The translations under genes and the position numbers were made by a program. Positions 7,774 to 44,554 of a stretch of 64,000 nt of DNA are shown here, piece after piece (position 1 is the stretch's first letter; every line of letters starts with the position of its first letter). The notes under the pieces are model-generated. The model was not told the DNA's origin and made no database searches. It was given only the letters and a program-made list of their open reading frames with translations. The stretch is from contig JAUSNO010000025.1 of assembly GCA_030645915.1 (NCBI GenBank), positions 1-64,000 on the forward strand, read 5' to 3'. This DNA comes from Undibacterium sp. (lineage in GTDB: Bacteria; Pseudomonadota; Gammaproteobacteria; Burkholderiales; Burkholderiaceae_D).

Positions 7774-7834
7774 CACGCAATATCCATGCGGGTTTCCAGC
7801 CTGCCTGGCCTGCAAGCCGCATGTAGCATGCGTG
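7774..7834 (+). repeat. 61-bp palindromic repeat, copy 1
   Basis: The left arm CACGCAATATCCATGCGGG pairs imperfectly with the right arm ending TGCGTG. One of nine copies of a dispersed family. It lies between the 3' ends of the kinase and the small frame at 7917, a convergent junction. Confidence 0.8.
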
Positions 7835-7916
7835 CTGGGCTTGCCTGTTTTTATATCTACGGGGCTACCAAGGCGTCGCTACCAAGCATTCCTGACACGC
7901 CACCAGCCAATTGCTA

Positions 7917-15971: not shown

Positions 15972-16032
15972 CACGCACTATCCATGCGGGTTTACAGCCT
16001 AATCGGCCTACAAGGCGCATGGATGTTGCGTG
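15972..16032 (+). repeat. 61-bp palindromic repeat, copy 2
   Basis: Arms CACGCACTATCCATGCGGG and GCGCATGGATGTTGCGTG. It lies just beyond the glmS 3' duplicate and before the 3' end of the diguanylate cyclase, in a convergent setting. Confidence 0.8.
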
Positions 16033-16148
16033 GTGGCGGTGTGCATTTTGAATTTTTTTATGCTGCCATCAAACGCATTCCGGATCCCTGACAGGCTCCA
16101 CCATGTGCGTTGATGATGCCATTTGATGGGTTCGGTACGGCGCTTGAC

Positions 16149-17421: not shown

Positions 17422-17482
17422 CACGCCCTATCCATGCGGGTTTGCAGCCTGCCTGGCCTGTAAGGCGCATGGGTGTTGCGTG
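17422..17482 (+). repeat. 61-bp palindromic repeat, copy 3
   Basis: Arms CACGCCCTATCCATGCGGG and GCGCATGGGTGTTGCGTG. It lies between the 5' end of the diguanylate cyclase and the 3' end of the dehydrogenase, both on the minus strand. Confidence 0.8.
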
Positions 17483-22178: not shown

Positions 22179-22288
22179 CCGGGCGTGCGCTATTACCTGC
22201 GTTCTGTCTCAACGATAGGTCGAATTCGCCGCTAATATGCATCTCGTCAAATGCTTGCCGCTATAAAACTGAAAACAGGCACCGCCAT

Positions 22289-22349
22289 CACGCAATCCCC
22301 ATGCGGGCTAGCGGCCGGGCAGGCCCGGAACCCGCATGGATAGGGCGTG
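22289..22349 (-). repeat. 61-bp palindromic repeat, copy 4 (inverted)
   Basis: Read on the minus strand it opens CACGCCCTATCCATGCGGG and ends GGGGATTGCGTG, matching copies 3 and 6, so it is inserted in the opposite direction. It lies between two plus-strand genes. Confidence 0.8.
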
Positions 22350-22427
22350 CTGGCGGCATGTGTTGAGAATTAAAATACCGCGCCTGCTGCTACACTGCAT
22401 GACTTATTTAACAACCGGAGTCGCCTG

Positions 22428-28497: not shown

Positions 28498-28954
28498 GGG
28501 AGTATTTCAACTAGAGCGGGATAGCCAGAATTTAACCTCAGGCACCATGAAAATTAAACGATTTTTTTGATCTTTGTATATGCGTATATGGCCATGTATG
28601 GTTGTTATTGCATGACTTGCTGTCCGCACATGCCACCGCGGCCCGGCGCATCGCGTTTTTTTACAAGGCACGCCGCTGTCACGCATATTCCATGCGCCTC
28701 TCCGGCCTGTCAGGTCTGCAAGCCGCATGGGTACTGCGTCTCTGGCATGGCACATTTTGTGTTTTTTTGTGTTTTAGCTGAGTCCTGAGCGGATTACGCA
28801 ATACCGTTCCTCCAGCGCCACCGGGAAGAAGCATGGCAGGCAGAAACGCTCGCGGTAAAAAAAGTATGTGGCGACACTTTTATGCCTATAATCGTTCTTG
28901 CTATCTGCACACATTCGAGCTTGCGCTTGCCGTAGAAAACTCTATGCCCACGAT
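28498..28954. other. Divergent intergenic region
   Basis: About 450 bases between the YeeE operon and the 1084-residue signalling protein. Apart from the palindromic repeat copy, there is an AT-rich patch near 28545-28600 that could hold promoters. I see no further gene. Confidence 0.4.
28680..28740 (+). repeat. 61-bp palindromic repeat, copy 5
   Basis: The arms CACGCATATTCCATGCG and CCGCATGGGTACTGCGTC are weaker than in other copies. It is the only copy between divergent genes. Confidence 0.75.
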
Positions 28955-32292: not shown

Positions 32293-32353
32293 CACGCACT
32301 ATCCATGCGGGTTTTCAGCCACCCTGCCCTGCAGACCGCACGGGGATTGCGTG
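32293..32353 (+). repeat. 61-bp palindromic repeat, copy 6
   Basis: Arms CACGCACTATCCATGCGGG and CCGCACGGGGATTGCGTG. It lies between the 3' ends of two convergent genes. Confidence 0.8.
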
Positions 32354-32424
32354 TTGGCGGTGCCATTCATAGTAACCCTGACAGTAGCCGTGACAGATTC
32401 ATTGCGAGTACGCCACTGCGCAGC

Positions 32425-33306: not shown

Positions 33307-34980
33307 ATGAACAAAGTATTAGAAAACCAATTTTATTATCTGGATAACTTTCAGCTGGTGCTGGCCTGGATCACCGAACGCTACCACGACCTGCTGACCG
33401 AGGACGAGCATGCCTTCATCGCGCAGTTCAGCCAGCTGCCGCAAAACGCCCGCGCCCTGTTCGTCCGCATGGTCATGCGCAAGGGTTGCCTGTTCCGCGC
33501 CAGCAAGCTCAATTACGCGGAGATAGGCAATACAACGGAAGCCGCGCTACCGCTGCTGGCTACCGGCTGGATAGAAACCGATCCATGCTTGGATCTGGAA
33601 CAATTATTCGAGCTCTTATTGAAGCATGAAATCAGCCAGACGTTTCAGCTGACGACAGCCGAAAAGGGCTTGCGCAAGCCGGAACAATTGGCGCTGTTGC
33701 GGGAAAAATTTGCCCAGATGCCAGATACGCAACATTTTTCAAGCTGGACTCCGGATTCGGGCGAGCAGGTGTATCAGGTATTGAACAAGGATTTGTGCGA
33801 ACGTTTGCGCTTGATTTTTTTCGGCAATTTCCATCAGGGCTGGTCGGAATTCGTGCTCTCGGATCTGGGCATTTACCAATATGAAAAAGTCGAATTTTCG
33901 CTGGCATCGCGCGGCTTTCGCAGCCGGCAGGATATTGACGACTACGTGGCGCTGCAACGCTGTCGTGAACGCTTCTACAATGAAGACCCGGTGGCCGAGG
34001 TATTGCAGGATTTATCCGCCAGCCTGACAGGCGAAGGCAATGACTGGCTCGCTGGCCGGCGCGAAAAATTCATGTTCCAGATCGCCGAGCATCTGGAGAA
34101 AGCCAAGGATTGGGATGGCGCAGTCGGGATTTATTCGGTGTGCCGCCACCCCGGCGCACGGGTACGCCGCATCCGCGTATTGGAGAAGAATGGCCAAAGC
34201 GCAATCGCGCATGCCTTGCTGAAAACCGCACAGGACGCGCCGGAAAGCGAGGCTGAGCTGCAGCAATTATTGCGCATTGCGCCGCGCCTCAATCGCAAGC
34301 TGGGCCACGCCAAACTGGCGGCAACACCTAGCACGCCGGTGCAACGCATCGATTTAAGTTTGCCATTTCCCGATGCGCCCTGTTACGTCGAAGGCGTGGT
34401 CAGGGATCATCTGACTAGCGTTGACGCACCGGTGTTTTATGTCGAAAACGCCCTGATCAATTCGCTGTTTGGCCTGCTGTGCTGGCAGGCGATTTTCAAA
34501 CCCCTGCCCGGCGCTTTCTTCCATCCTTTTCACCGCGGCCCGGCTGACCTGCACAGCGCCGATTTTCAACAACGCCGCGCGACCGAATTTTCCGCCTGCC
34601 TAGCGCAACTCGACACCGATGACTACAAGTTAAATATACGCCGCCGCTTTGCAGAAAAACAGGGCATACAGTCGCCCTTTGTGTTCTGGAATGTCCTCAG
34701 CGAAGAATTGCTGGAGCTGGCCTTAAGCTGCATCCCCGCGGCGCATCTAAAGCGCTGGTTTGAGCGTATCTTGCTCGACATCAAAACCAATCGCAACGGT
34801 CTGCCCGACCTGATCCAATTCTGGCCGACCCGGCCGCCAGAACAGCGCTACCGCATGATAGAAGTGAAGGGGCCCGGCGACAAACTGCAAGACAACCAGA
34901 AGCGCTGGATAGACTATTGCGCCACACACCAGATACCGATCACGGTCTGCTATCTGGAATGGAGCGAGGATAGCGCGTGA
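33307..34980 (+). CDS. FAN1-like structure-specific nuclease with VRR-NUC domain
   Basis: A 557-residue homologue of FAN1, the 5'-flap nuclease that unhooks interstrand crosslinks. The N-terminal part carries a SAP-like helical region (FVRMVMRKGCLFRASKLNY), the middle is a TPR-like helical array, and the C-terminal VRR-NUC domain has PD (GLPDLIQFWP), EVKGPGD and QKRW, the PD-(D/E)xK metal site. The stop overlaps the GTG start of the helicase gene, so they form one operon. The bacterial family has an in vitro characterised Pseudomonas member. Confidence 0.88.
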   Translation: MNKVLENQFYYLDNFQLVLAWITERYHDLLTEDEHAFIAQFSQLPQNARALFVRMVMRKGCLFRASKLNYAEIGNTTEAALPLLATGWIETDPCLDLEQLFELLLKHEISQTFQLTTAEKGLRKPEQLALLREKFAQMPDTQHFSSWTPDSGEQVYQVLNKDLCERLRLIFFGNFHQGWSEFVLSDLGIYQYEKVEFSLASRGFRSRQDIDDYVALQRCRERFYNEDPVAEVLQDLSASLTGEGNDWLAGRREKFMFQIAEHLEKAKDWDGAVGIYSVCRHPGARVRRIRVLEKNGQSAIAHALLKTAQDAPESEAELQQLLRIAPRLNRKLGHAKLAATPSTPVQRIDLSLPFPDAPCYVEGVVRDHLTSVDAPVFYVENALINSLFGLLCWQAIFKPLPGAFFHPFHRGPADLHSADFQQRRATEFSACLAQLDTDDYKLNIRRRFAEKQGIQSPFVFWNVLSEELLELALSCIPAAHLKRWFERILLDIKTNRNGLPDLIQFWPTRPPEQRYRMIEVKGPGDKLQDNQKRWIDYCATHQIPITVCYLEWSEDSA

Positions 34981-37256
34981 GCAAAGAGATGAGCAAGGAC
35001 GTGAACAAGGGGCTGCAATACAGCGTCGCAGTGCGCGCCTTGTGCGAATTCACCGCAAAGCAAGGTGATCTGGATTTGCGCTTCACGCCCTCGCCGTCGG
35101 CGCAGGAAGGCATCGCCGGCCACGCGCAGGTGAGCGCACGCCGCAGCGACAGTTACCAGCGCGAAGTCAGCCTCTCCGGCGAATTTAGTACGTTAAGGGT
35201 GCGCGGCCGCGCCGATGGCTACGACCCGGTGCGCAATCAGCTGGAAGAAATCAAGACCTTTCGCGGCGAGCTCAATGCCATGCCGGACAACCATCGCCAG
35301 CTGCATTGGGCGCAGGCCAAAGTGTATGGACATTTGCTGTGTCAGAAGCTGGGGCTGAACAGTCTGCATGTCGCGCTGGTGTATTTCGATATCGGCAGCC
35401 AGAAAGAAACCGTGCTGCAGGAAGAGCACTCGGCTGACGCGCTGCGCCACTACTTCGAACTATTGTGCGGCCGTTTCCTGCAATGGGCCGAACAGGAAAT
35501 CTTTCACCGTCGCGCCCGCGATCTTGCGCTGACGCAGATGGCATTTCCCCATCCGACTTTTCGGCCTGGCCAGCGCCAACTGGCCGAGGCCATGTACAAG
35601 GCCAGCAACCGCGGCTGCGCGCTGCTGGCGCAAGCGCCTACCGGCATAGGCAAGACCATAGGCAGCCTGTTCCCCATGCTCAAGGCCAGCGCCGTACATC
35701 AGCTCGACAAAATATTTTTTCTGGCCGCCAAAACTTCCGGCCGCCAGCTGGCGCTTGATGCGCTATCGACCATCAAGCGCAGCGCGCCGGGCTTGCCCTT
35801 GCGCGTGCTGGAGCTGGTCGCCAAAACCACCGCCTGCGAATATCCCGACAAGGCCTGTCATGGCGATTCCTGTCCGCTCGCCAAGGGTTTTTATGACCGC
35901 CTGCCGGCTGCACGCAGCGCCGCTCTACAGGTCAATATTCTGGACAAGGCAAGCCTGCGCGAGCTGGCCCTGGCGCATCAGGTTTGCCCCTATTACCTCA
36001 GCTCAGAACTGGCGCGCTGGTCTGACGTGATCGTCGGCGACTACAACTATTATTTCGACATCAGCGCCCTGCTGTATGGCTTGACGATGGCCAACGACTG
36101 GCGCGTCGGCGTGCTGGTGGACGAGGCGCACAATATGGTGGCGCGGGCGCGCAGCATGTACTCGGCAGAACTCAATCACCTTAGCCTGAAGTCGCTGCGC
36201 AAGCATGCGCCGGCCAAGCTAAAAAAAACGCTGGATAAGCTGCACCGGCAGTGGGCGCAACTGGAAAAGAATCAAGAATCCGACTACCAGGTCTATCCCA
36301 AGCTACCGGACAAATTCATGCAGGTTTTGCAGGCTAGTTGCAACCACATAGGCGAGTATTTTGCCGATCATCCCGGTGCCGTTGATGCCGAATTGCAGCG
36401 CTTCTATTTCGATGCCTTGCTGTTTGCCAAATTGGCCGAGAGCTTTGCCGATCATTCGCTGTTTGACATCAGCAAGGACGCCCATGCCTCCGTGCTCTGC
36501 ATCAGAAATATCGTCCCCGCGCCGTTTTTAAAACCGCGCTTCGCGGCCAGCCACAGCACGGCCTTATTCTCTGCCACGCTCAGTCCGTGGAACTATTATT
36601 GCGATCTACTGGGCATGCCGGACAATACCGCCTGGGTCGATGTCGACTCGCCGTTTGAAGCGCAACAGCTAGCGGTGCAAGTGGTCAAGACCATCTCCAC
36701 CAGATTCCAGCATCGCGAGCAATCGCTGGCACCGATAGTCGATTTGATGGCGCAACAATATGCCGCGCAGGCCGGCAATTACTTGGCGTTTTTCAGCAGC
36801 TTCGACTACATGGAAAAGGTCGCCGCGCTATTTGTCGAGCGCCATCCACAGATCCCGGTGTGGCAGCAAACCAGGCGCATGGACGAAGCGGGACGCGAGC
36901 AATTTCTGGCGCGCTTTAGCAGCGACAGTTGCGGCATCGGTTTTGTCGTACTCGGCGGTTCGTTTGGCGAAGGCATAGACCTGCCCGGCGCACGCCTGAT
37001 CGGCGCCTTTATCGCTACCCTAGGCCTGCCGCAGATCAACACTATCAACGAACAGATCAGGCAACGCATGCAGCAAATCTTTGGCGCAGGCTACGACTAC
37101 ACCTATCTGTATCCGGGCATACAGAAAGTCGTGCAAGCCGCCGGCCGCGTCATCCGCACAGAAACCGACCGCGGCGTGATCTACCTGATCGACGACAGGT
37201 TCGCCCGGCCTGAAGTCATGCAATTGCTGCCGAGCTGGTGGGAGGTAAAATCGTAA
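34977..37256 (+). CDS. Nuclease-helicase of the DinG/XPD family
   Basis: A 759-residue DNA repair helicase. Residues of about 75-175 form a RecB-like PD-(D/E)xK nuclease: GRAD80, E91-I-K93 and Q113xxxY117. Walker A APTGIGKT is at 220-227 and DEAH at 382-385. C287, C294, C299 and C337 form an iron-sulfur cluster like that of XPD. The C-terminal helicase half ends with QAAGRVIRTETDRG. The GTG start overlaps the FAN1 stop by four bases (GTGA). Nuclease and 5'-3' helicase in one chain fit crosslink or replication-fork repair with FAN1. Confidence 0.88.
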   Translation: MSKEMSKDVNKGLQYSVAVRALCEFTAKQGDLDLRFTPSPSAQEGIAGHAQVSARRSDSYQREVSLSGEFSTLRVRGRADGYDPVRNQLEEIKTFRGELNAMPDNHRQLHWAQAKVYGHLLCQKLGLNSLHVALVYFDIGSQKETVLQEEHSADALRHYFELLCGRFLQWAEQEIFHRRARDLALTQMAFPHPTFRPGQRQLAEAMYKASNRGCALLAQAPTGIGKTIGSLFPMLKASAVHQLDKIFFLAAKTSGRQLALDALSTIKRSAPGLPLRVLELVAKTTACEYPDKACHGDSCPLAKGFYDRLPAARSAALQVNILDKASLRELALAHQVCPYYLSSELARWSDVIVGDYNYYFDISALLYGLTMANDWRVGVLVDEAHNMVARARSMYSAELNHLSLKSLRKHAPAKLKKTLDKLHRQWAQLEKNQESDYQVYPKLPDKFMQVLQASCNHIGEYFADHPGAVDAELQRFYFDALLFAKLAESFADHSLFDISKDAHASVLCIRNIVPAPFLKPRFAASHSTALFSATLSPWNYYCDLLGMPDNTAWVDVDSPFEAQQLAVQVVKTISTRFQHREQSLAPIVDLMAQQYAAQAGNYLAFFSSFDYMEKVAALFVERHPQIPVWQQTRRMDEAGREQFLARFSSDSCGIGFVVLGGSFGEGIDLPGARLIGAFIATLGLPQINTINEQIRQRMQQIFGAGYDYTYLYPGIQKVVQAAGRVIRTETDRGVIYLIDDRFARPEVMQLLPSWWEVKS

Positions 37257-37294: not shown

Positions 37295-37352
37295 GCGCCC
37301 TCTCCATGCGGGTTTGCGGGCATATAGGCTGGAAACCCGCATGGATGGTGCG
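37295..37352 (+). repeat. Palindromic repeat, copy 7
   Basis: The arms CTCCATGCGGGTTT and AAACCCGCATGGATGGTGCG pair well around a loop with GCATATAGGC. It is between convergent genes. The outer left base is altered relative to the other copies. Confidence 0.75.
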
Positions 37353-37384
37353 TTCTGGGCTAGTGCCATATTAAATTTTTCTGA

Positions 37385-37927
37385 TTATTCGAACATATCG
37401 CGCGCAGATACGGCGCACTGATCGCGAATTGTTTCATATACGATCTTGTCAGCATCGGAGTAACAACAAAAAACAATCTCCTTCAGCGACGAACCGAGCT
37501 CGATGAATTCAAGCACAGTGGCAACCGCTATCTGCGCCGCCTGCGCTATCGGGTAAGCATAAATCCCCGTACTGATAGAAGGAAACGCAATCGAGGTCAA
37601 ATTTTTTGATACGGCAATTTCCAAGGATTGTCGATAACACGAGCGCAGCAATTCTGTCTCACCGCCATCGCCGCCGCGCCAGACCGGCCCTACGGTATGA
37701 ATGATAAATCGCGCGGGCAACAAATACCCCTTGGTTATTTTTGCCTCGCCGGTTTTGCAACTGGACAGAAGCCGACATTCATGCAACAGATCTGGCCCCG
37801 CCGCACGATGAATCGCGCCATCAACGCCACCACCGCCGAGTAGGGAGGAATTAGCTGCGTTAACTATCGCATCTACCGCTAATTTGGTGATGTCACCTTT
37901 GATAATTTTTATCACGACTTGGCTCAT
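37385..37927 (-). CDS. ymdB: Macro-domain O-acetyl-ADP-ribose deacetylase
   Basis: A 180-residue macro-domain protein. The signatures are [31 protein letters not shown], given here in two halves as [16 protein letters not shown] and [14 protein letters not shown], and [14 protein letters not shown]. It would hydrolyse O-acetyl-ADP-ribose or remove ADP-ribose from proteins. E. coli YmdB is the closest remembered relative. It sits next to an NrtR-controlled NAD locus, a fitting neighbour because its substrate comes from NAD. Confidence 0.9.
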
Positions 37928-38216: not shown

Positions 38217-38969
38217 ATGAGCAACGCCAAGCAAAGCGAAAAAGAATTTCTGCGCACCTACAATATCCATGATTATGAAGTACCACTGACCAGCGTTGAT
38301 CTGGCGATATTTACGATTAAGGATCAGCTCTTGCAGGTCTTGCTGGTGAAGCGCGGCGATCATCCGTTCAAGGGCAAGTGGTGTTTGCCTGGCGGGTTTA
38401 TTGACATTCATCATGACGCCGATCTCGATGCCGCAGCCTTGCGCACACTGCGCGAGAAGACCGGGGTTGACGCACCTTACCTGGAGCAGCTGCAGGGCTT
38501 TGGCAGTGGCGTGCGTGATCCGCGCGGCTGGTCCACTACCTTTGTGTATTTTGCCTTGATATCTTCCGATCAGATCGACTTGATCCACGGCGGTAATGCC
38601 GATGCGGTCCGCTGGTGTGCTATCGATGATCAGAATGTTATTCCGCCATTGGCGTTTGACCATAAACCGATCCTGGAAGTCGCGCTGCAACGCCTGCGCA
38701 ACAAAGTGGAATACACCTCTCTGCCCGCGCACTTGCTGCCGGAAGAATTTACGCTGACCGAATTGCAGCAGGTCTACCAGATCGTACTCGGTCGCCTGGT
38801 CGACAAAAGCGCGTTTCGCAAGCGCATCAGGGAAGGTGATTTTCTTGAAGAGCTGGAAGGAAAATGGCGCTATGGCAGCAATCGCCCCGCTCAGCTACAT
38901 CGCCTGCGCAAAGGACAAGACACCGTGTACTTTAGCCGACTCATGAGTGGTGAAACAAGTGCAAAGTAG
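38217..38969 (+). CDS. nrtR: NrtR-type Nudix-related transcriptional regulator
   Basis: A 250-residue protein. A Nudix fold spans about 20-160, but its box is degenerate: the first catalytic Glu is replaced in GFIDIHHDADLDAAALRTLREKTG, as in NrtR repressors that bind ADP-ribose rather than hydrolyse it. The C-terminal winged helix spans about 170-240 (FTLTELQQVYQIVLGRLVDKSAFRKRI is its first half). It would repress NAD-salvage genes. The remains of such an operon lie 2 kb downstream, and a matching palindrome lies in its own promoter. Confidence 0.85.
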   Translation: MSNAKQSEKEFLRTYNIHDYEVPLTSVDLAIFTIKDQLLQVLLVKRGDHPFKGKWCLPGGFIDIHHDADLDAAALRTLREKTGVDAPYLEQLQGFGSGVRDPRGWSTTFVYFALISSDQIDLIHGGNADAVRWCAIDDQNVIPPLAFDHKPILEVALQRLRNKVEYTSLPAHLLPEEFTLTELQQVYQIVLGRLVDKSAFRKRIREGDFLEELEGKWRYGSNRPAQLHRLRKGQDTVYFSRLMSGETSAK

Positions 38970-39307
38970 CTTGGCTGGTGTGTGCCGATTCGCTTTAAAC
39001 TTGCAACACGTTTGCGCATGAAAGCAGCCGGGTATTGGTAATCCGCGTTATGCGCCGCGAATAGCCGCTGAGGGGCGAAAGCTGCCCTTCAAGGTTTATA
39101 TTAATTTTGTCAATTTTATTAGTAGAGTGAAATCAAATAGCAATGATGCTTTTCACGATTTATTTTATGCCCTGTAAAAGCAGGACATTTTCTTGAAAGC
39201 ACAGCTGCAAGCATGTTTTGAGAGTTTCCTCTCGAAATGTTATGCGACAATCGTCCGATTTCCCCGTCACGGGAACGGACATATCTAGTTAGACCACTTT
39301 GAAAAGC
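38970..39307. other. Intergenic region with integron-like hairpins
   Basis: The region holds no credible gene. Two 8-base GTTATGCG motifs stand at 39047 and 39239. The 3' end carries a short attC-like hairpin described separately. Confidence 0.4.
39239..39294 (+). other. Putative attC-like site ahead of the DUF2071 cassette
   Basis: A stem GTCCG...CGGAC (39253-39257, 39276-39280) with inner TTTCCC/GGGAA, followed by the integron core GTTAGAC at 39288-39294. The left inverse core is not clear, so this may be only the right half of a site. The core is exactly complementary to the inverse core at the far end of the DUF2071 gene, as expected for a cassette boundary. Confidence 0.5.
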
Positions 39308-40102
39308 ATGCAAGCCAAGCTCAAAATCACCGATCTTCTTCACCCACGTCCTACACCATCTGGCATTGATGTGCTATGCAAACTCCAGCACTTTGCGATC
39401 ATTACGTATGCTTTTGATCCAGCACGATTTGATGGCGTTATGCCCAGTCGATTCAAGCTCGACACTGTGCTTATAGACGACTGCGAGAAGGCTTTGATCT
39501 CCGTCGTACCTTTTATTGATGTTGACTTTACCTCTGCAGTATTTCCCTTTCCCAAGTTCAAAATGGGGCAGACCAATTACCGCATCTATATTGAAGATAC
39601 ACACACAAACGAGAAATGCGTTTGGTTTTTGGGAACAACGCTTGATTCCTGGACACGAGTCATCCCGCACAATGTGTGGAATCTGCCGTGGTACTCCGGC
39701 AATGTAATGTTTGATTGCGTACAAGCTGAAAATGGCACTTACACAAAGTACATCATGGAGACAAAGGCCAGCTGGGCTCCGGCCAAAGTCAAACTTTTTG
39801 AAACTCCTACAAATGAGCTTAGCCTTCAAGGTTTCCCTGACAACGAAACGGGGCTCGCTTTCCTGACTCATCCACTTCGTGGCTACTACCACAGGCGAGA
39901 TGGTAAGCTAGGCACCTATCATGTGTGGCACAAGCAACTTGACGTCGCTCCAGCCCGCCTGGCTGAAGCCAACTTCGGTCTTCTTAAGCGATTGGGACTT
40001 GTAACGCTTGAAGAGCAACAATACCCTCACAGCGTCTTACTGGAGCCGATGAATGAGTTCACCATCTATCTACCTCCAAAGATTCTTGACACAGTGGTCT
40101 AA
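39308..40102 (+). CDS. DUF2071 (YqjF-like) domain protein in a gene cassette
   Basis: A 264-residue protein of the DUF2071 family, function unknown. It has the motif CKLQHFAIITYAFDPARFDGVMP near the N-terminus, WNLPWYSG in the middle and LLEPMNEFTIYLPPK at the end. The stop codon TAA lies inside the inverse core of the following attC site, a typical trait of integron cassettes. The start codon is not preceded by a good ribosome site. Base composition is more even than in core genes. Confidence 0.8.
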   Translation: MQAKLKITDLLHPRPTPSGIDVLCKLQHFAIITYAFDPARFDGVMPSRFKLDTVLIDDCEKALISVVPFIDVDFTSAVFPFPKFKMGQTNYRIYIEDTHTNEKCVWFLGTTLDSWTRVIPHNVWNLPWYSGNVMFDCVQAENGTYTKYIMETKASWAPAKVKLFETPTNELSLQGFPDNETGLAFLTHPLRGYYHRRDGKLGTYHVWHKQLDVAPARLAEANFGLLKRLGLVTLEEQQYPHSVLLEPMNEFTIYLPPKILDTVV

Positions 40103-40191: not shown

Positions 40192-40539
40192 ATGATTACA
40201 CTTGATGATTCAAAATGGGTAAAGCTAGCGATGATTGAATTTCCGCTTGGTTCCGAGACGGACGACGAACTCTTTCGCAGACTGAAGGCGGAAGTTCTCG
40301 CAATGGGCGGAACGATTAGGGAGAAGGATTGGGCTGTTGGCGGATCTCAGGAAGTCATTACTTATGCGATCTCATTGCCGCAAGGCGAAATTGAGGCTAT
40401 CTCGGAAACCTATGTTGGCTTGTCGCTGCGTGGCGAAGAAAGCGTTGTTAGTATTCTGTTGCAACGCGTCCTGCCCAACCAAGCAAATACTCAATTAACA
40501 CGGACGCGCAAAAGCGCATTAGTTATTTTTGATCGTTAA
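40192..40539 (+). CDS. Hypothetical 115-residue protein after the attC site
   Basis: A small soluble protein, no family recognised. It has strands near VKLAMIEFPLG and EVITYAISLPQGEIEAISETYVGLSL, and a basic C-terminus (TRTRKSALVIFDR). The ATG begins four bases after the attC core, as the second cassette in the array would. No attC site follows, so the right end of this cassette is lost or decayed. Confidence 0.6.
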   Translation: MITLDDSKWVKLAMIEFPLGSETDDELFRRLKAEVLAMGGTIREKDWAVGGSQEVITYAISLPQGEIEAISETYVGLSLRGEESVVSILLQRVLPNQANTQLTRTRKSALVIFDR

Positions 40540-40718
40540 AACCCCTTTTTTTTGAGTAGTGACGTCTCCTTTCAGTCTTTTTCCGTCCATCTATTTGTGC
40601 AGAAATACATTATTTCTGCCTTTGCCTTGGCAGACAAGTCACTTGTTCCGCTTGATGCTTCGCAATACAAATTTGCACACACGATGAGAACTCAGAGTTA
40701 ATTTAAGCACCACGCCAG

Positions 40719-40779
40719 CACGCATTATCCATGCGCCTTTCCAGCCTATATGCTCGTAACCCCGCATGGATAGTGCGTG
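40719..40779 (-). repeat. 61-bp palindromic repeat, copy 8 (inverted)
   Basis: Read on the minus strand it opens CACGCACTATCCATGCGGGG with a loop containing GCATATAGGCTGG, like copies 7 and 9, so it is inverted relative to them. It lies before the NrtR-like site of the pncA-like stub. Confidence 0.8.
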
Positions 40780-40832
40780 TTGGCGGTGCTGCTTGAGAGA
40801 ATTTCAGTCCTCTTAAAAATAATTTACATTAC

Positions 40833-40853
40833 TTAGTTGCGAAAACACACTAA
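40833..40853. promoter_or_regulatory. Candidate NrtR operator before the pncA-like stub
   Basis: A 21-bp inverted repeat with CTTAGT/ACTAAG arms (one base wider than the site at 38144). Both sites read TTAGT at one end and CACTAA at the other with the same overall length. It stands 43 bases before the stub's ATG. Confidence 0.65.
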
Positions 40854-40895
40854 GCATCCTACAATGAAATCACTCATCAAAAAAAAGGACGAGAG

Positions 40896-41042
40896 ATGAA
40901 ACGCAATTTACATTTATTGATTATCGATCCGCAGAATGATTTTTGTGATTTGCCTGCTGGCTATCTGCCGGCAGATCAGACGCTGCCCGCCTTGCCGGTC
41001 ACTGGTGCGCATGCTGATAGCAGCACGCGAAGATACGATTAG
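40896..41042 (+). pseudogene. pncA: Truncated nicotinamidase/isochorismatase-like gene, 5' part only
   Basis: The first 40 residues match the start of isochorismatase-fold nicotinamidases: LHLLIIDPQNDFCDLP, then PALPVTGAHAD, with the catalytic Asp in IDPQNDF. After codon 41 the sequence turns foreign and a stop is reached at codon 49. A good ribosome site (GGACGAGAG) and the operator remain. Nicotinamidase feeds nicotinic acid to NAD, which fits the nrtR-nadM context. Confidence 0.75.
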
Positions 41043-41063
41043 TTATGCGTCATCGTATCTTCG
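41028..41063. repeat. Perfect 12-bp inverted repeat at the insertion edge
   Basis: Arms CGAAGATACGAT (41028-41039) and ATCGTATCTTCG (41052-41063) around a 12-base loop that contains GTTATGC. It is at the left edge of the block that broke pncA. No T run follows. It could be an element terminus or an operator of the following gene. Confidence 0.6.
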
Positions 41064-41125
41064 TGGACTGAACTACGTAATTGGCTCGCGAAGCGATAAT
41101 CAACTGCATCTTATGGGAGTACTTT

Positions 41126-41998
41126 ATGGAATATCCGGATGACCAGACCAGAGAGCAATGGCTCACAAAGTGCGAAGAAAATCGAAATCCGTTCTATGCT
41201 CATCCGAAGAATCCAAATCAACACATTTGGCGATATATGGATTTCGCCAAATTTGTGGCATTGATTGATTCAAGTGAACTTTATTTCCCCTGCGCAGAAA
41301 ATTTCGACGACCGTTTCGAGGGGTCAATATCTAAAGAAAATATCCGTCGCTTGCCTTCGCAAATTGAAGAGAATGTACAGCAATTTCCGATAGATATGAG
41401 AGATAAAATGAGCATTGCGCACAAACAATTTTCTGAAGTAAATTCATTGCATCTCGAATGGCAGCGGCATTGGACATACATTAGTTGCTGGCATATAAAT
41501 GATCAGGAATCCGCCGCGATGTGGAAACTTTACGCGGAAAGTAAACAAGCAATTGCGATCCAGTCGACATTTGAGCGACTAGACAAATGCCTCGATCCAC
41601 ATAGATATCCTCCACATAGTGAGCCGATGCTTGGAATGGTGAAGTATGTTGACTATACCGTCGACTTTATAGGACAACGTGATCATTTATCTGAATTTTT
41701 TCACAAACGTAAGTCATTTGCGCATGAACAAGAGGTTCGTGCAGTGATACAAGAATTACCTTTAATTCCGGTTGCATGGGATGACAATGGCAAAACGACC
41801 GGATCGCATTATGATAAAGAAAAACGACCCCTGGCAGGGAAATCTCTTAAAGTCAATCTTGACCAATTAATAGAAGGAATTTACGTTGCGCCAGGCGCAC
41901 CGCCGTGGCTTACTTCGCTGACCGAAAAAATCATTAATAAATACGATCTAAAGAAAGAGGTTCACAATTCTGCTTTAGATGGGAAACCACTTTACTGA
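41126..41998 (+). CDS. DUF2971 domain protein, inserted gene
   Basis: A 290-residue protein of the DUF2971 family, function unknown, often found in variable genome regions. The family core is visible: RYMDFAKFVALIDSSELYFPCAENFDDRFEG, written here in shorter form as YMDFAKFVALIDSSELYF, then FEGS, WHINDQESAAMWKLYAES and FHKRKSFAHEQEVRAVI. GGGAG lies before the ATG; an upstream TTG would add 15 residues. It is AT-rich and separates the halves of the NAD operon. Confidence 0.8.
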   Translation: MEYPDDQTREQWLTKCEENRNPFYAHPKNPNQHIWRYMDFAKFVALIDSSELYFPCAENFDDRFEGSISKENIRRLPSQIEENVQQFPIDMRDKMSIAHKQFSEVNSLHLEWQRHWTYISCWHINDQESAAMWKLYAESKQAIAIQSTFERLDKCLDPHRYPPHSEPMLGMVKYVDYTVDFIGQRDHLSEFFHKRKSFAHEQEVRAVIQELPLIPVAWDDNGKTTGSHYDKEKRPLAGKSLKVNLDQLIEGIYVAPGAPPWLTSLTEKIINKYDLKKEVHNSALDGKPLY

Positions 41999-42128
41999 AA
42001 TTTCGAAAACCGTAAGCCGCAATCAGTAGCGAGTAGATACTGATAGTAAAGCGAAATCGTAAACATGCTTGGGACAAACACATCTTGGCAAAACTCGTAT
42101 GTTAATGCCGCCCCCCCCCATTTCTCAT

Positions 42129-42785
42129 TGCAACATTGATGCCGAATTTATTGTTATCGATGACGGGCTCGATCTGGTGCAGCAATTTAGCAAGGGCTAT
42201 AGCCAGGCTTTCGATGCGCCCTTGCAAGGCTTGCCGCTGGAGAATTTGCAGGCGCGCATATGCGGCACTATCCTGATGGAATATTCCAATACCTTCGGCG
42301 CCTTGCTGATCACGACCGGCAACAAGAGCGAAATCTCGGTCGGTTATTGCACCCTGTATGGCGATACCAATGGCGGGCTGGGCCTGATCGGCGATCTGTA
42401 CAAGACCGAAGTGTATGACCTCGCGCGCCACGTGAACGAGCACGCCGGGCGCGAGATTATTCCCGCCGACGTTCTGACCAAGCCGCCTTCGGCCGAGCTG
42501 GCACCGGGGCAGAAAGATACCGACAGCCTGCCGCCGTATGAAGTACTCGATGAAATCCTCAAATGGCATATCGAAGGCAATAGATTACCCGGCAACGAGG
42601 CCGCCACGGCATTGCAACTGGTCAGCCATTTGCAGGCCAGCGAAGACGGGGAAAAAACCGTGCAGCGTATACTGGGCATGGTGGCGCGCAATGAATACAA
42701 ACGCCGCCAGGCACCGCCTATTATCCGCGTCCGTTCACGCGCATTCGGCAGCGGCCGCCAGATGCCGATTGCAGCAAAATACTAG
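42129..42785 (+). pseudogene. nadE: NAD synthetase, C-terminal fragment
   Basis: The last 218 residues of a glutamine-dependent NAD synthetase. Recognisable are ENLQARICGTILMEYSNTFG, TTGNKSEISVGYCTLYGD, KPPSAELAPGQKDTDSLPPYE and NEYKRRQAP. The glutaminase domain and the ATP-binding SGGxDS loop are missing, so it cannot be functional alone. Upstream lies a run of nine Cs and then the DUF2971 insertion. The frame itself is intact to the stop, so truncation appears recent. Confidence 0.85.
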
Positions 42786-42798
42786 AATAGGAAACGTC

Positions 42799-43863
42799 AT
42801 GAATACTTCCCGCCAAGTTGAAGTTGCGGTACTCATCGGGCGCTTTCAGCCCTTCCATAACGGCCACGCCAGCTTGCTACGCCTGGCGCTCGACACTGCG
42901 GCCAAAGTGGTCATCGTGATCGGTTCATCGTTCCACGCGCGTAGTACCAAAAACCCTTTCACCTGGCAGGAGCGCGCCACGATGATCGCCGAGACCTTAC
43001 CTGAGTCTGAGCGGGGCCGGGTCAGCTATATCGCCATGCGCGATTATTACGATGACACCCGCTGGACTGCCGCGGTATGCAAGCAGGTCGAATTGCATGC
43101 ATCTGCGGCGCGGCACATAGCGCTGATCGGGCACTTCAAGGACGCGTCCAGCTATTACCTGCACCGCTTCCCGCAATGGCATCTGATCGCCGTCGACGAG
43201 GCGCTGGACGTGGATGCGCTGAGCATCAATGCCACCAGTATCCGCAAGGTCTTGTTTGAAGCCGAGAACATCGACGTCTCGCTGGCGGTGATTGATCAGC
43301 ATGTGCCGCTGTGCATACGGCAGTATCTGCGAGCTTGGTCCCTGTTACCGCACTACGCGGCGCTGGCGTCGGAACACGCGCAGTTGATGGCGTACAAGGC
43401 GACATGGAGTGGCGCACCCTACCCGCCTGTCTTTTCCACCGCAGACGCGGTCGTCAAGGCGGATGAGCATGTGTTGTTAATACAGCGCGGCGGCTTCCCC
43501 GGCAAGGGCTTGTGGGCATTACCGGGCGGATTTATCGAGCAGGACGAGCGCGTGATTCAGGCGGCAATACGCGAGCTGCGCGAAGAAACCAAGCTCGCGG
43601 TATTAACCTCGACGCTGGAAAACGCACTGCTCGACGTCAAGGTATTCGATCACCCTGGCCGCAGCCAGCGCGGCCGCACTATTACGCACGCGCACTTCTT
43701 TGATCTGAAAACAGAATACTTCCCGGACGTAGAAGGGGCTGACGATGCAGCAACGGCAAGCTGGGTGCCAATAGCCAATTTAAGGGCGATGGAAGAACAT
43801 TTTTTTGATGATCACTTCCATATCCTCGATTGTTTTTTGGGTCTAACTATCAATGATGCCTGA
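42799..43863 (+). CDS. nadM: Bifunctional NMN adenylyltransferase/Nudix hydrolase
   Basis: A 354-residue fusion. The N-terminal nucleotidyltransferase has GRFQPFHNGH at 14-23 and a STKNPF loop, joining NMN and ATP to NAD. The C-terminal Nudix domain has the full box GGFIEQDERVIQAAIRELREET (catalytic E residues intact) and probably hydrolyses ADP-ribose or ADP-ribosyl compounds. AGGAA precedes the ATG. It follows the nadE remnant by 13 bases and was once the end of the NrtR operon. Its present promoter is unclear. Confidence 0.9.
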   Translation: MNTSRQVEVAVLIGRFQPFHNGHASLLRLALDTAAKVVIVIGSSFHARSTKNPFTWQERATMIAETLPESERGRVSYIAMRDYYDDTRWTAAVCKQVELHASAARHIALIGHFKDASSYYLHRFPQWHLIAVDEALDVDALSINATSIRKVLFEAENIDVSLAVIDQHVPLCIRQYLRAWSLLPHYAALASEHAQLMAYKATWSGAPYPPVFSTADAVVKADEHVLLIQRGGFPGKGLWALPGGFIEQDERVIQAAIRELREETKLAVLTSTLENALLDVKVFDHPGRSQRGRTITHAHFFDLKTEYFPDVEGADDAATASWVPIANLRAMEEHFFDDHFHILDCFLGLTINDA

Positions 43864-43894
43864 AGGGCAAAAACGCTGCGAAGGCATGCGCCAG

Positions 43895-43955
43895 CACGCA
43901 ATATCCATGCGGGTTTGCAGGCATATAGGCTGGAAACCCGCATGGATAGTGCGCT
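43895..43955 (+). repeat. 61-bp palindromic repeat, copy 9
   Basis: The best-paired copy. CACGCAATATCCATGCGGG with CCCGCATGGATAGTGCG enclose GCAGGCATATAGGC. It is between convergent genes. Confidence 0.85.
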
Positions 43956-44002
43956 CCGCCTAGTGCCAGGCCTACCTGTTTTGCATTCATCCGAGGTATT
44001 CC

Positions 44003-44239
44003 TTAACCATGCTTCCAGTCGCTTGCCCTGCGCTCGGATTTCCACAATACCCGCGCCACCACATGCGAGGGCACGCCGGCGGCGAGCATCATGACGGCAC
44101 CGGCTTCCTTATCGACTAAAAACGCAGCGGCCAAGCCTTTGTTCACTTGTACCTCGACGTCGGCATTGGTCCGGACAGTCTGGGTCGCTCTATCCATCAA
44201 CTCTGTTTTTACTATGGCATCTCTTGCACTGGCGTTCAT
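44003..44239 (-). CDS. Hypothetical 78-residue protein
   Basis: A small protein starting MNASARDAIVKTELMDRATQ, ending in a basic tail, and holding one hydrophobic patch (AGAVMMLAAGVPSHVVARVLW). GAGGG eight bases before the ATG supports this start over a longer one. No family is recognised; similar unnamed proteins are common in this order. About 315 bases upstream to the pabB start hold only a weak GCCTGAT/ATCAGGC hairpin (44377-44405). Confidence 0.6.
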   Translation of the reverse strand: MNASARDAIVKTELMDRATQTVRTNADVEVQVNKGLAAAFLVDKEAGAVMMLAAGVPSHVVARVLWKSERRASDWKHG

Positions 44240-44554
44240 GATGTTTCCCTCAAATGAAATTGGCGCGTATTCACCGTGACAGTCGGCAATCCCGATCAAT
44301 TTTGCCTCTGGGCCAGACATAGCCCCCATCACCCCATAACGTTCACGTTCTCTTTTATGCCGGCAACGTAAAAATTGCCTGATAACGATCCGATGGCGAT
44401 CAGGCTATGCCGCCACCGACATCCTGTCGGTTCGCTGGCGTACATTACGCATATCAACACCAAATAAGGTACAGACCAAAAGCCTATTGCATCATTAGAC
44501 AAGGAAACCTATCTGCGAGTAAACTTCAGGCCATCCGTCTTCAATGAATCTCTA

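What the first reader, a model, noticed from the sequence alone, without database searches (positions are those of the whole stretch)
40896..42785. NrtR-controlled NAD salvage operon split and truncated
A pncA-like gene cut at codon 41, an inserted DUF2971 gene, then nadE lacking its first domain, followed by intact nadM. Both flanks are damaged, so the event removed DNA as well as adding it. The cell must have another NAD synthetase or a different NAD source.
Basis: partly seen in the sequence, partly recalled or inferred. Interest (0 to 1): 0.7.

Follow-up and report, generated by a model that had tools for sequence, protein, structure and literature searches.

The report
Gutted NAD operon with toxin-like insert
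In an Undibacterium-like genome, the operon that recycles vitamin B3 into NAD has lost its middle, and a foreign gene that may be a distant relative of an NAD-using phage-defence toxin sits in the gap behind the operon's old NAD-sensing switch.

Summary
Relatives carry pncA-pncB-nadE-nadM, some with nrtR just upstream. Here pncA stops after codon 41, pncB is gone, and nadE keeps only residues 361-567, losing its glutaminase domain and ATP-binding loop. Against U. hunanense, 3,155 bp were replaced by 1,149 bp holding a DUF2971 gene. The lost parts were not found elsewhere in the 99.8% complete genome and the insert is single-copy, so misassembly is unlikely (no reads were available). NAD supply is no puzzle: nadA, nadB, nadC and a full second nadE are present, and 38 of 43 genus genomes carry that nadE. 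New points: nrtR, its likely operator and nadM are kept, so NrtR may now control DUF2971 plus nadM. DUF2971 matches the PADLOC candidate PDC-S31, occurs on phage/prophage contigs, and two related AlphaFold models both give DarT ADP-ribosyltransferases as top PDB hits, with low TM-scores and no sequence match. Operon loss: confident. DarT-like fold: plausible, unproven. A regulatory link between ADP-ribose-sensing NrtR and an NAD-consuming DUF2971: speculative.

The parts
38217..38969 (+). nrtR, intact Nudix-type repressor gene
   Evidence: Pfam NrtR_WHD 77.3 bits (cut-off 27) and NUDIX 55.6 (cut-off 21.1); NF050029 260.6 bits, below its cut-off 400; 69-73% identical to NrtR of L035 and L043
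38970..40830 (.). extra 1.9 kb between nrtR and the operator: DUF2071 gene (39299-40102), small ORF (40192-40539), palindromic repeat (40705-40794)
   Evidence: DUF2071 and the small ORF had matches only in own-genome loci among 113 loci compared
40831..40854 (+). likely NrtR operator ACTTAGTTG-N9-ACTAAG, overlapping a promoter-like match 40837-40865
   Evidence: only exact match in the window and in the genome; both half-sites upstream of pncA in 8 of 11 relatives; promoter-like matches in the region are no commoner than chance (9 found, 7.4 expected)
40896..41018 (+). pncA remnant (codons 1-41; open to a stop after 48 codons)
41019..42167 (.). inserted, non-homologous DNA replacing about 3.15 kb
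   Evidence: junctions; single copy in genome
41126..41998 (+). DUF2971 / PDC-S31 gene, possible DarT-like ADP-ribosyltransferase fold
42168..42785 (+). nadE remnant (residues 361-567; no SGG P-loop)
42799..43863 (+). nadM, intact bifunctional NMN adenylyltransferase / Nudix gene
   Evidence: Pfam CTP_transf_like 40.3 bits (cut-off 21) and NUDIX 68.1 (cut-off 21.1); NF003788 344.2 bits, just below its cut-off 354; 60-71% identical to the nadM of 11 genus relatives

Best explanation
An Undibacterium NAD salvage operon (nrtR-pncA-pncB-nadE-nadM) was gutted by a replacement: about 3.15 kb was lost (pncA from codon 42, all pncB, nadE codons 1-360) and about 1.15 kb of AT-rich DNA with one DUF2971 gene took its place. 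The cell cannot use the PncA/PncB route and very likely makes NAD de novo through NadB, NadA, NadC and the second NadE. NrtR, its likely operator and NadM survive, so transcription from the NrtR promoter should read the pncA remnant, DUF2971, the nadE remnant and nadM. DUF2971 is most likely a phage-borne accessory or defence gene, possibly with a DarT-like ADP-ribosyltransferase fold, that is, an NAD user. Shown by sequence: the losses, the kept operator-like palindrome, open nrtR and nadM, the second nadE and nadABC. Inferred: that the palindrome is the NrtR site, co-transcription, NrtR control of DUF2971, its fold and activity.
For: Intact order in nine of twelve relatives' loci fetched. 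Junctions. No PF00857, no PF04095, no PncB relative and no other operon-type nadE piece in the own genome; insert single-copy. nadA, nadC, nadB and second nadE all above NCBIfam cut-offs. Operator. No terminator-like site on the + strand between 40620 and 44500. DUF2971: 41% GC against 57-58% for the nadE remnant and nadM, no relative in the 42 other genus genomes, 56 loci in viral contigs, PDC-S31 in 44 of 44 aligned members, DarT top hits.
Against: No reads, so the assembly is not proven. NrtR binding and co-transcription untested. At 2 mismatches the operator pattern is not enriched in the genome: 8 matches against 42 for the reversed control pattern. DarT link: TM-scores 0.33-0.50, best E 0.0047 for the window protein, no sequence match.
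Confidence: 0.8

Rival explanations
1. Plain decay with a chance passenger: a dispensable, patchy operon is being lost, DUF2971 landed there by chance, and its place behind the NrtR operator has no function.
For: The operon is patchy: pncB in 20 of 43, full-length operon nadE in 15 of 43 genus genomes; L044 and L045 lost nadE alone and L065 has another broken nadE; none of 60 DUF2971 loci carries relatives of the window's macro, nrtR or nadM proteins, although the four non-viral ones reach only about 1.5 kb either side.
Against: nrtR, operator and nadM are kept, and nadM shows no excess of changes at conserved columns (12 of 178; relatives 0-20).
Confidence: 0.6
2. DUF2971 is not an ADP-ribosyltransferase; the DarT hits reflect only a loosely similar sheet topology.
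For: TM-scores 0.33-0.50 and rmsd mostly 7-15 A; no DarT family hit in 44 members scanned against Pfam and no PDB sequence hit; the invariant residues after strand 2 are Asp, Glu and Gly, not the Arg that DarT uses (R51; passages of PMC9967889); the two models share most of their alignment, so they are not independent.
Against: Ranks 1-6 for the window protein and 1-7 for the phage relative are all DarT chains, followed by unrelated folds at probability 0.03 or less; invariant Glu201 and Glu203 beside a late strand could be the ART glutamate.
Confidence: 0.45
3. Misassembly or a chimeric contig near the C run.
For: A run of nine Cs lies close to one junction; no reads were available.
Against: The missing pncA, pncB and nadE parts were not found in the genome; the insert is single-copy, so there is no repeat to misjoin at.
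Confidence: 0.05

Closest known systems
NrtR-controlled NAD salvage operon (e.g. P. aeruginosa nadD2-nrtR and pncA-pncB1-nadE, passages of PMC6363681; Undibacterium and Janthinobacterium loci)
   Same: nrtR next to the salvage genes, palindrome upstream of pncA, nadM last
   Different: pncA, pncB and nadE destroyed; DUF2971 inserted; 1.9 kb between nrtR and the operator
DarT (DUF4433) DNA ADP-ribosyltransferase of the DarTG toxin-antitoxin system
   Same: best PDB fold matches for two DUF2971 models; conserved glutamates
   Different: no sequence match; no DarG-like partner found beside DUF2971 (limited test); no conserved Arg after strand 2
PDC-S31 (PADLOC-DB candidate) / Pfam DUF2971 / PHROG 34615
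   Same: profile matches E 2.7e-20, 9.4e-4 but under the Pfam cut-off, 3e-54
   Different: this member sits in a metabolic operon, not in a recognisable prophage
ARG-centred ADP-ribose conflict systems with Nudix-type regulators (PMC9503650, section 3.8 read)
   Same: a Nudix-type repressor near ADP-ribose-processing domains (macro, Nudix)
   Different: no ARG domain seen among the proteins scanned here; a predicted transferase; seen in one genome only

Membership tests
NrtR-controlled NAD salvage operon | nrtR gene adjacent | tested here: met
   (below the NCBIfam equivalog cut-off)
NrtR-controlled NAD salvage operon | palindromic operator upstream of the salvage genes | tested here: met
   exact match 40831-40854; binding itself not tested
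NrtR-controlled NAD salvage operon | working pncA, pncB, nadE | tested here: not met
NrtR-controlled NAD salvage operon | intact nadM | tested here: met
   (NCBIfam 344.2 against cut-off 354)
DarT ADP-ribosyltransferase | ART fold | tested here: inconclusive
   top 6 and top 7 PDB hits are DarT, but TM-scores 0.33-0.50
DarT ADP-ribosyltransferase | sequence match to the DarT family | tested here: not met
   no DarT family among Pfam hits of 44 members; no PDB sequence hit
DarT ADP-ribosyltransferase | catalytic Arg (R51) and Glu (E160) | tested here: inconclusive
   E201 and E203 invariant in 44 of 44; no invariant Arg between strand 2 and the next strand; no residue-level superposition was possible. 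DarT residues from passages
DarT ADP-ribosyltransferase | paired DarG (macro) or NADAR gene | tested here: inconclusive
   0 of 60 DUF2971 loci hold a relative of the window's macro protein; divergent DarG or NADAR would be missed; in the window a macro gene lies 3.2 kb away
DarT ADP-ribosyltransferase | ADP-ribosylates DNA bases | not testable with these tools
   -
PDC-S31 / DUF2971 | profile match | tested here: met
   Pfam DUF2971 20.9 bits against cut-off 22
PDC-S31 / DUF2971 | phage resistance | not testable with these tools
   -

The most novel reading that the evidence does not exclude
The operon has been rewired rather than merely lost: an NAD-consuming, DarT-like defence protein (DUF2971) was captured under an ADP-ribose-sensing repressor. 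When DUF2971 or a phage enzyme releases ADP-ribose, NrtR lets go, DUF2971 and NadM rise together, and NadM (adenylyltransferase plus Nudix domain), helped by the neighbouring macro-domain protein, clears the products. More broadly, DUF2971/PDC-S31 would be a phage-borne family of NAD-dependent ADP-ribosyltransferases.
Probability: 0.15. Interest if true: 0.75.

Novelty: new variant of a known kind. Interest (0 to 1): 0.4.

Why it matters
The gene loss is ordinary. What could matter is a testable function for DUF2971, a phage-borne defence-candidate family: the library searched holds one paper with the word DUF2971 and none with PDC-S31. A DarT-like fold predicts NAD use and a glutamate-dependent activity. 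The locus also offers a natural case of a metabolic repressor left in charge of a possible NAD-consuming gene after the metabolic genes have gone.

Tried and rejected
Second pncA or pncB elsewhere in the genome: none found. Insert as repeat or mobile element: single-copy; no DNA match in plasmids or phages; no target-site duplication beyond chance length (7 bp; shuffles average 6.8); among the listed matches of 185 other loci (output cut at 40 rows), those to phage-contig loci lay in the coding part, and one 20-nt match to L121 lay at its end. Macro-domain gene 37385-37927 as antitoxin of DUF2971: a macro relative lies on the same side of nrtR in G017, which has no DUF2971, so it more likely belongs to the NAD locus. 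nadE remnant as a working enzyme: no P-loop. DarT link by sequence: failed. BFVD search: 1 of 118 matches at E 0.001 or better, unnamed; no function gained. Literature: DUF2971 in 1 paper (Halomonas reannotation; listing only); PDC-S31 in none; NrtR with Undibacterium in none; other searches seen as listings only.

Full report
What is there. The window lies on a 90-kb contig of a 4.17-Mb, 99.79% complete genome. The genes are nrtR 38217-38969, DUF2071 39299-40102, a small ORF 40192-40539, a pncA remnant from 40896, DUF2971 41126-41998, a nadE remnant to 42785 and nadM 42799-43863.

Comparison with intact operons. Twelve relatives' loci were fetched (L035-L046). pncA-pncB-nadE-nadM is complete in nine: L035-L038 and L040-L043 of the genus, and L046 of another family in the order. 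L039 is cut by a contig end. L044 and L045 have pncA-pncB-nadM without nadE. nrtR is just upstream in the same direction in L035, L042 and L043 and divergent in L041 (44% identical); in L046 only part of an nrtR-like match was seen, and L036-L038, L040, L044 and L045 showed none in the stretch fetched. Aligned to L035 (U. hunanense), the window keeps pncA up to the residue equivalent to 46 and resumes at nadE residue 361. The stretch between is 3,155 bp in L035 and 1,149 bp in the window, and pncB is wholly inside it. The glutaminase domain and the SGGIDS loop of NadE are both gone.

Is it real. No reads were available. No PF00857 protein (the family rings in 12 of 14 control genomes), no PF04095 protein (6 of 14 controls) and no PncB relative was found in the genome. 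The other PF02540 matches are the second nadE and two short partial matches in other open frames, and a full-length operon NadE query found only the second nadE and the remnant. A misjoin should have left the missing pieces elsewhere. The insert has one copy.

NAD supply. The second NadE of 537 residues passes its NCBIfam cut-off (802.8 against 479 bits), and nadA, nadC and nadB lie together on contig 12, each over a cut-off. Of 43 genus genomes, 38 have this nadE nearly full length (39-44% identical to the operon type), one a part (G028), and four none: G007, G008 and G025 are 65-73% complete, and G066, 99% complete, has only the operon type. Full-length operon nadE occurs in 15 of 43 and pncB in 20 of 43. 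nadM is full length in 12 of the 36 genus genomes, with a part in one more (G018); all of these 13 except the window's genome have pncB. nadD was not searched.

What was kept. ACTTAGTTG-N9-ACTAAG at 40831-40854 is the only exact match in the window (5 matches at up to 3 mismatches, 0.62 expected) and in the genome. At 2 mismatches the genome gives 8 matches against 42 for the reversed control pattern, so weaker matches carry no information. Both half-sites occur upstream of pncA in 8 of 11 relatives aligned; L041 has one half, L044 and L045 none. That this is the NrtR site is inferred from place, palindrome and conservation; NrtR sites of Mycobacterium and Streptococcus differ in letters (passages of PMC6800001). 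A promoter-like match overlaps it, but such matches are no commoner than chance in the region (9 found, 7.4 expected), and no terminator-like site lies on the + strand from 40620 to 44500. The nadE remnant keeps an open frame with 8 of 146 relative-invariant columns altered, one an arginine turned to cysteine; ten relatives taken singly alter 0-5. nadM alters 12 of 178; relatives alter 0-20. This fits loss of constraint on nadE that is not old, and continued constraint on nadM, but numbers are small and synonymous sites are saturated.

The inserted gene. DUF2971 is 41% GC against 57-58% for the nadE remnant and nadM, has no relative in the 42 other genus genomes, and matched 4 of 398 other genomes sampled from the order at E 1e-10. 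It matches PDC-S31 and PHROG 34615 of unknown function. A viral-contig scan gave 56 loci. I aligned 43 of their proteins with the window's; one with a stop inside and 12 not chosen were left out. Fourteen columns are invariant. In the one viral locus whose neighbours I scanned (L150), terminase, integrase and DnaB-like helicase genes surround it. AlphaFold models of the window protein (pLDDT 88.4) and of the L150 protein (92.4) were compared with the PDB. For the first, ranks 1-6 are DarT chains (E 0.0047-0.14; Thermus and M. tuberculosis), then E 0.96. For the second, ranks 1-7 are DarT chains (E 0.00046-0.074; Thermus, E. coli, M. tuberculosis), then E 0.13 at probability 0.03. Tpt1, which the review seen lists as an ART type, appears at ranks 12 and 27. 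The two alignments share most members, TM-scores are 0.33-0.50, and sequence searches fail, so the link is suggestive only. DarT itself was first suspected from DUF4433 by 3D modelling without obvious sequence homology (passages of PMC5179494).

How it may work. The plain reading is loss of a dispensable pathway with an incidental passenger. The bolder reading is that an NAD-using protein has come under a repressor released by ADP-ribose (shown for MsNrtR in PMC6800001, passages), next to domains that process ADP-ribose. Nudix-type regulators in ADP-ribose conflict systems have been proposed (PMC9503650, section 3.8 read). Nothing here shows selection for the arrangement: none of 60 DUF2971 loci carries relatives of the window's macro, nrtR or nadM proteins, and the macro gene is near nrtR in G017 without DUF2971.

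Verdict.

Noticed in passing
window 7774-7838, 15972-16044, 17422-17482, 22279-22356, 28680-28739, 32293-32363, 37296-37377, 40705-40794, 43889-43953: A dispersed palindromic repeat of about 60-90 nt (REPIN-like by recall) occurs 9 times in the window. The genome search gave 68 matches, both strands counted and one of them the query itself, with 40 of 257 candidates scored. It folds strongly (z -9.9 and -5.1 for two copies).
   Followed up: partly
L065:3409-3489: A Burkholderiales MAG has another broken operon nadE: residues 1-303 and 371-565 are separated by a 79-nt AT-rich piece with stops, again removing the P-loop just upstream of nadM.
   Followed up: partly
window 37385-37927 (-): Macro-domain gene (PF01661 155.6 bits) beside nrtR; a 63% identical relative lies on the same side of nrtR in G017 (L043, also L081).
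   Followed up: partly
window 41021-41070: A strong hairpin (-25.3 kcal/mol, z -5.0) without a T run sits just behind the pncA break.
   Followed up: no
L044, L045 (G027, G033): Two genus genomes have pncA-pncB-nadM with no nadE in the operon and no match to the operator pattern upstream of pncA.
   Followed up: no
window 33307-37256: A FAN1-type VRR nuclease gene overlaps the start of a DEAD_2 / Helicase_C_2 helicase gene upstream of the macro gene.
   Followed up: no
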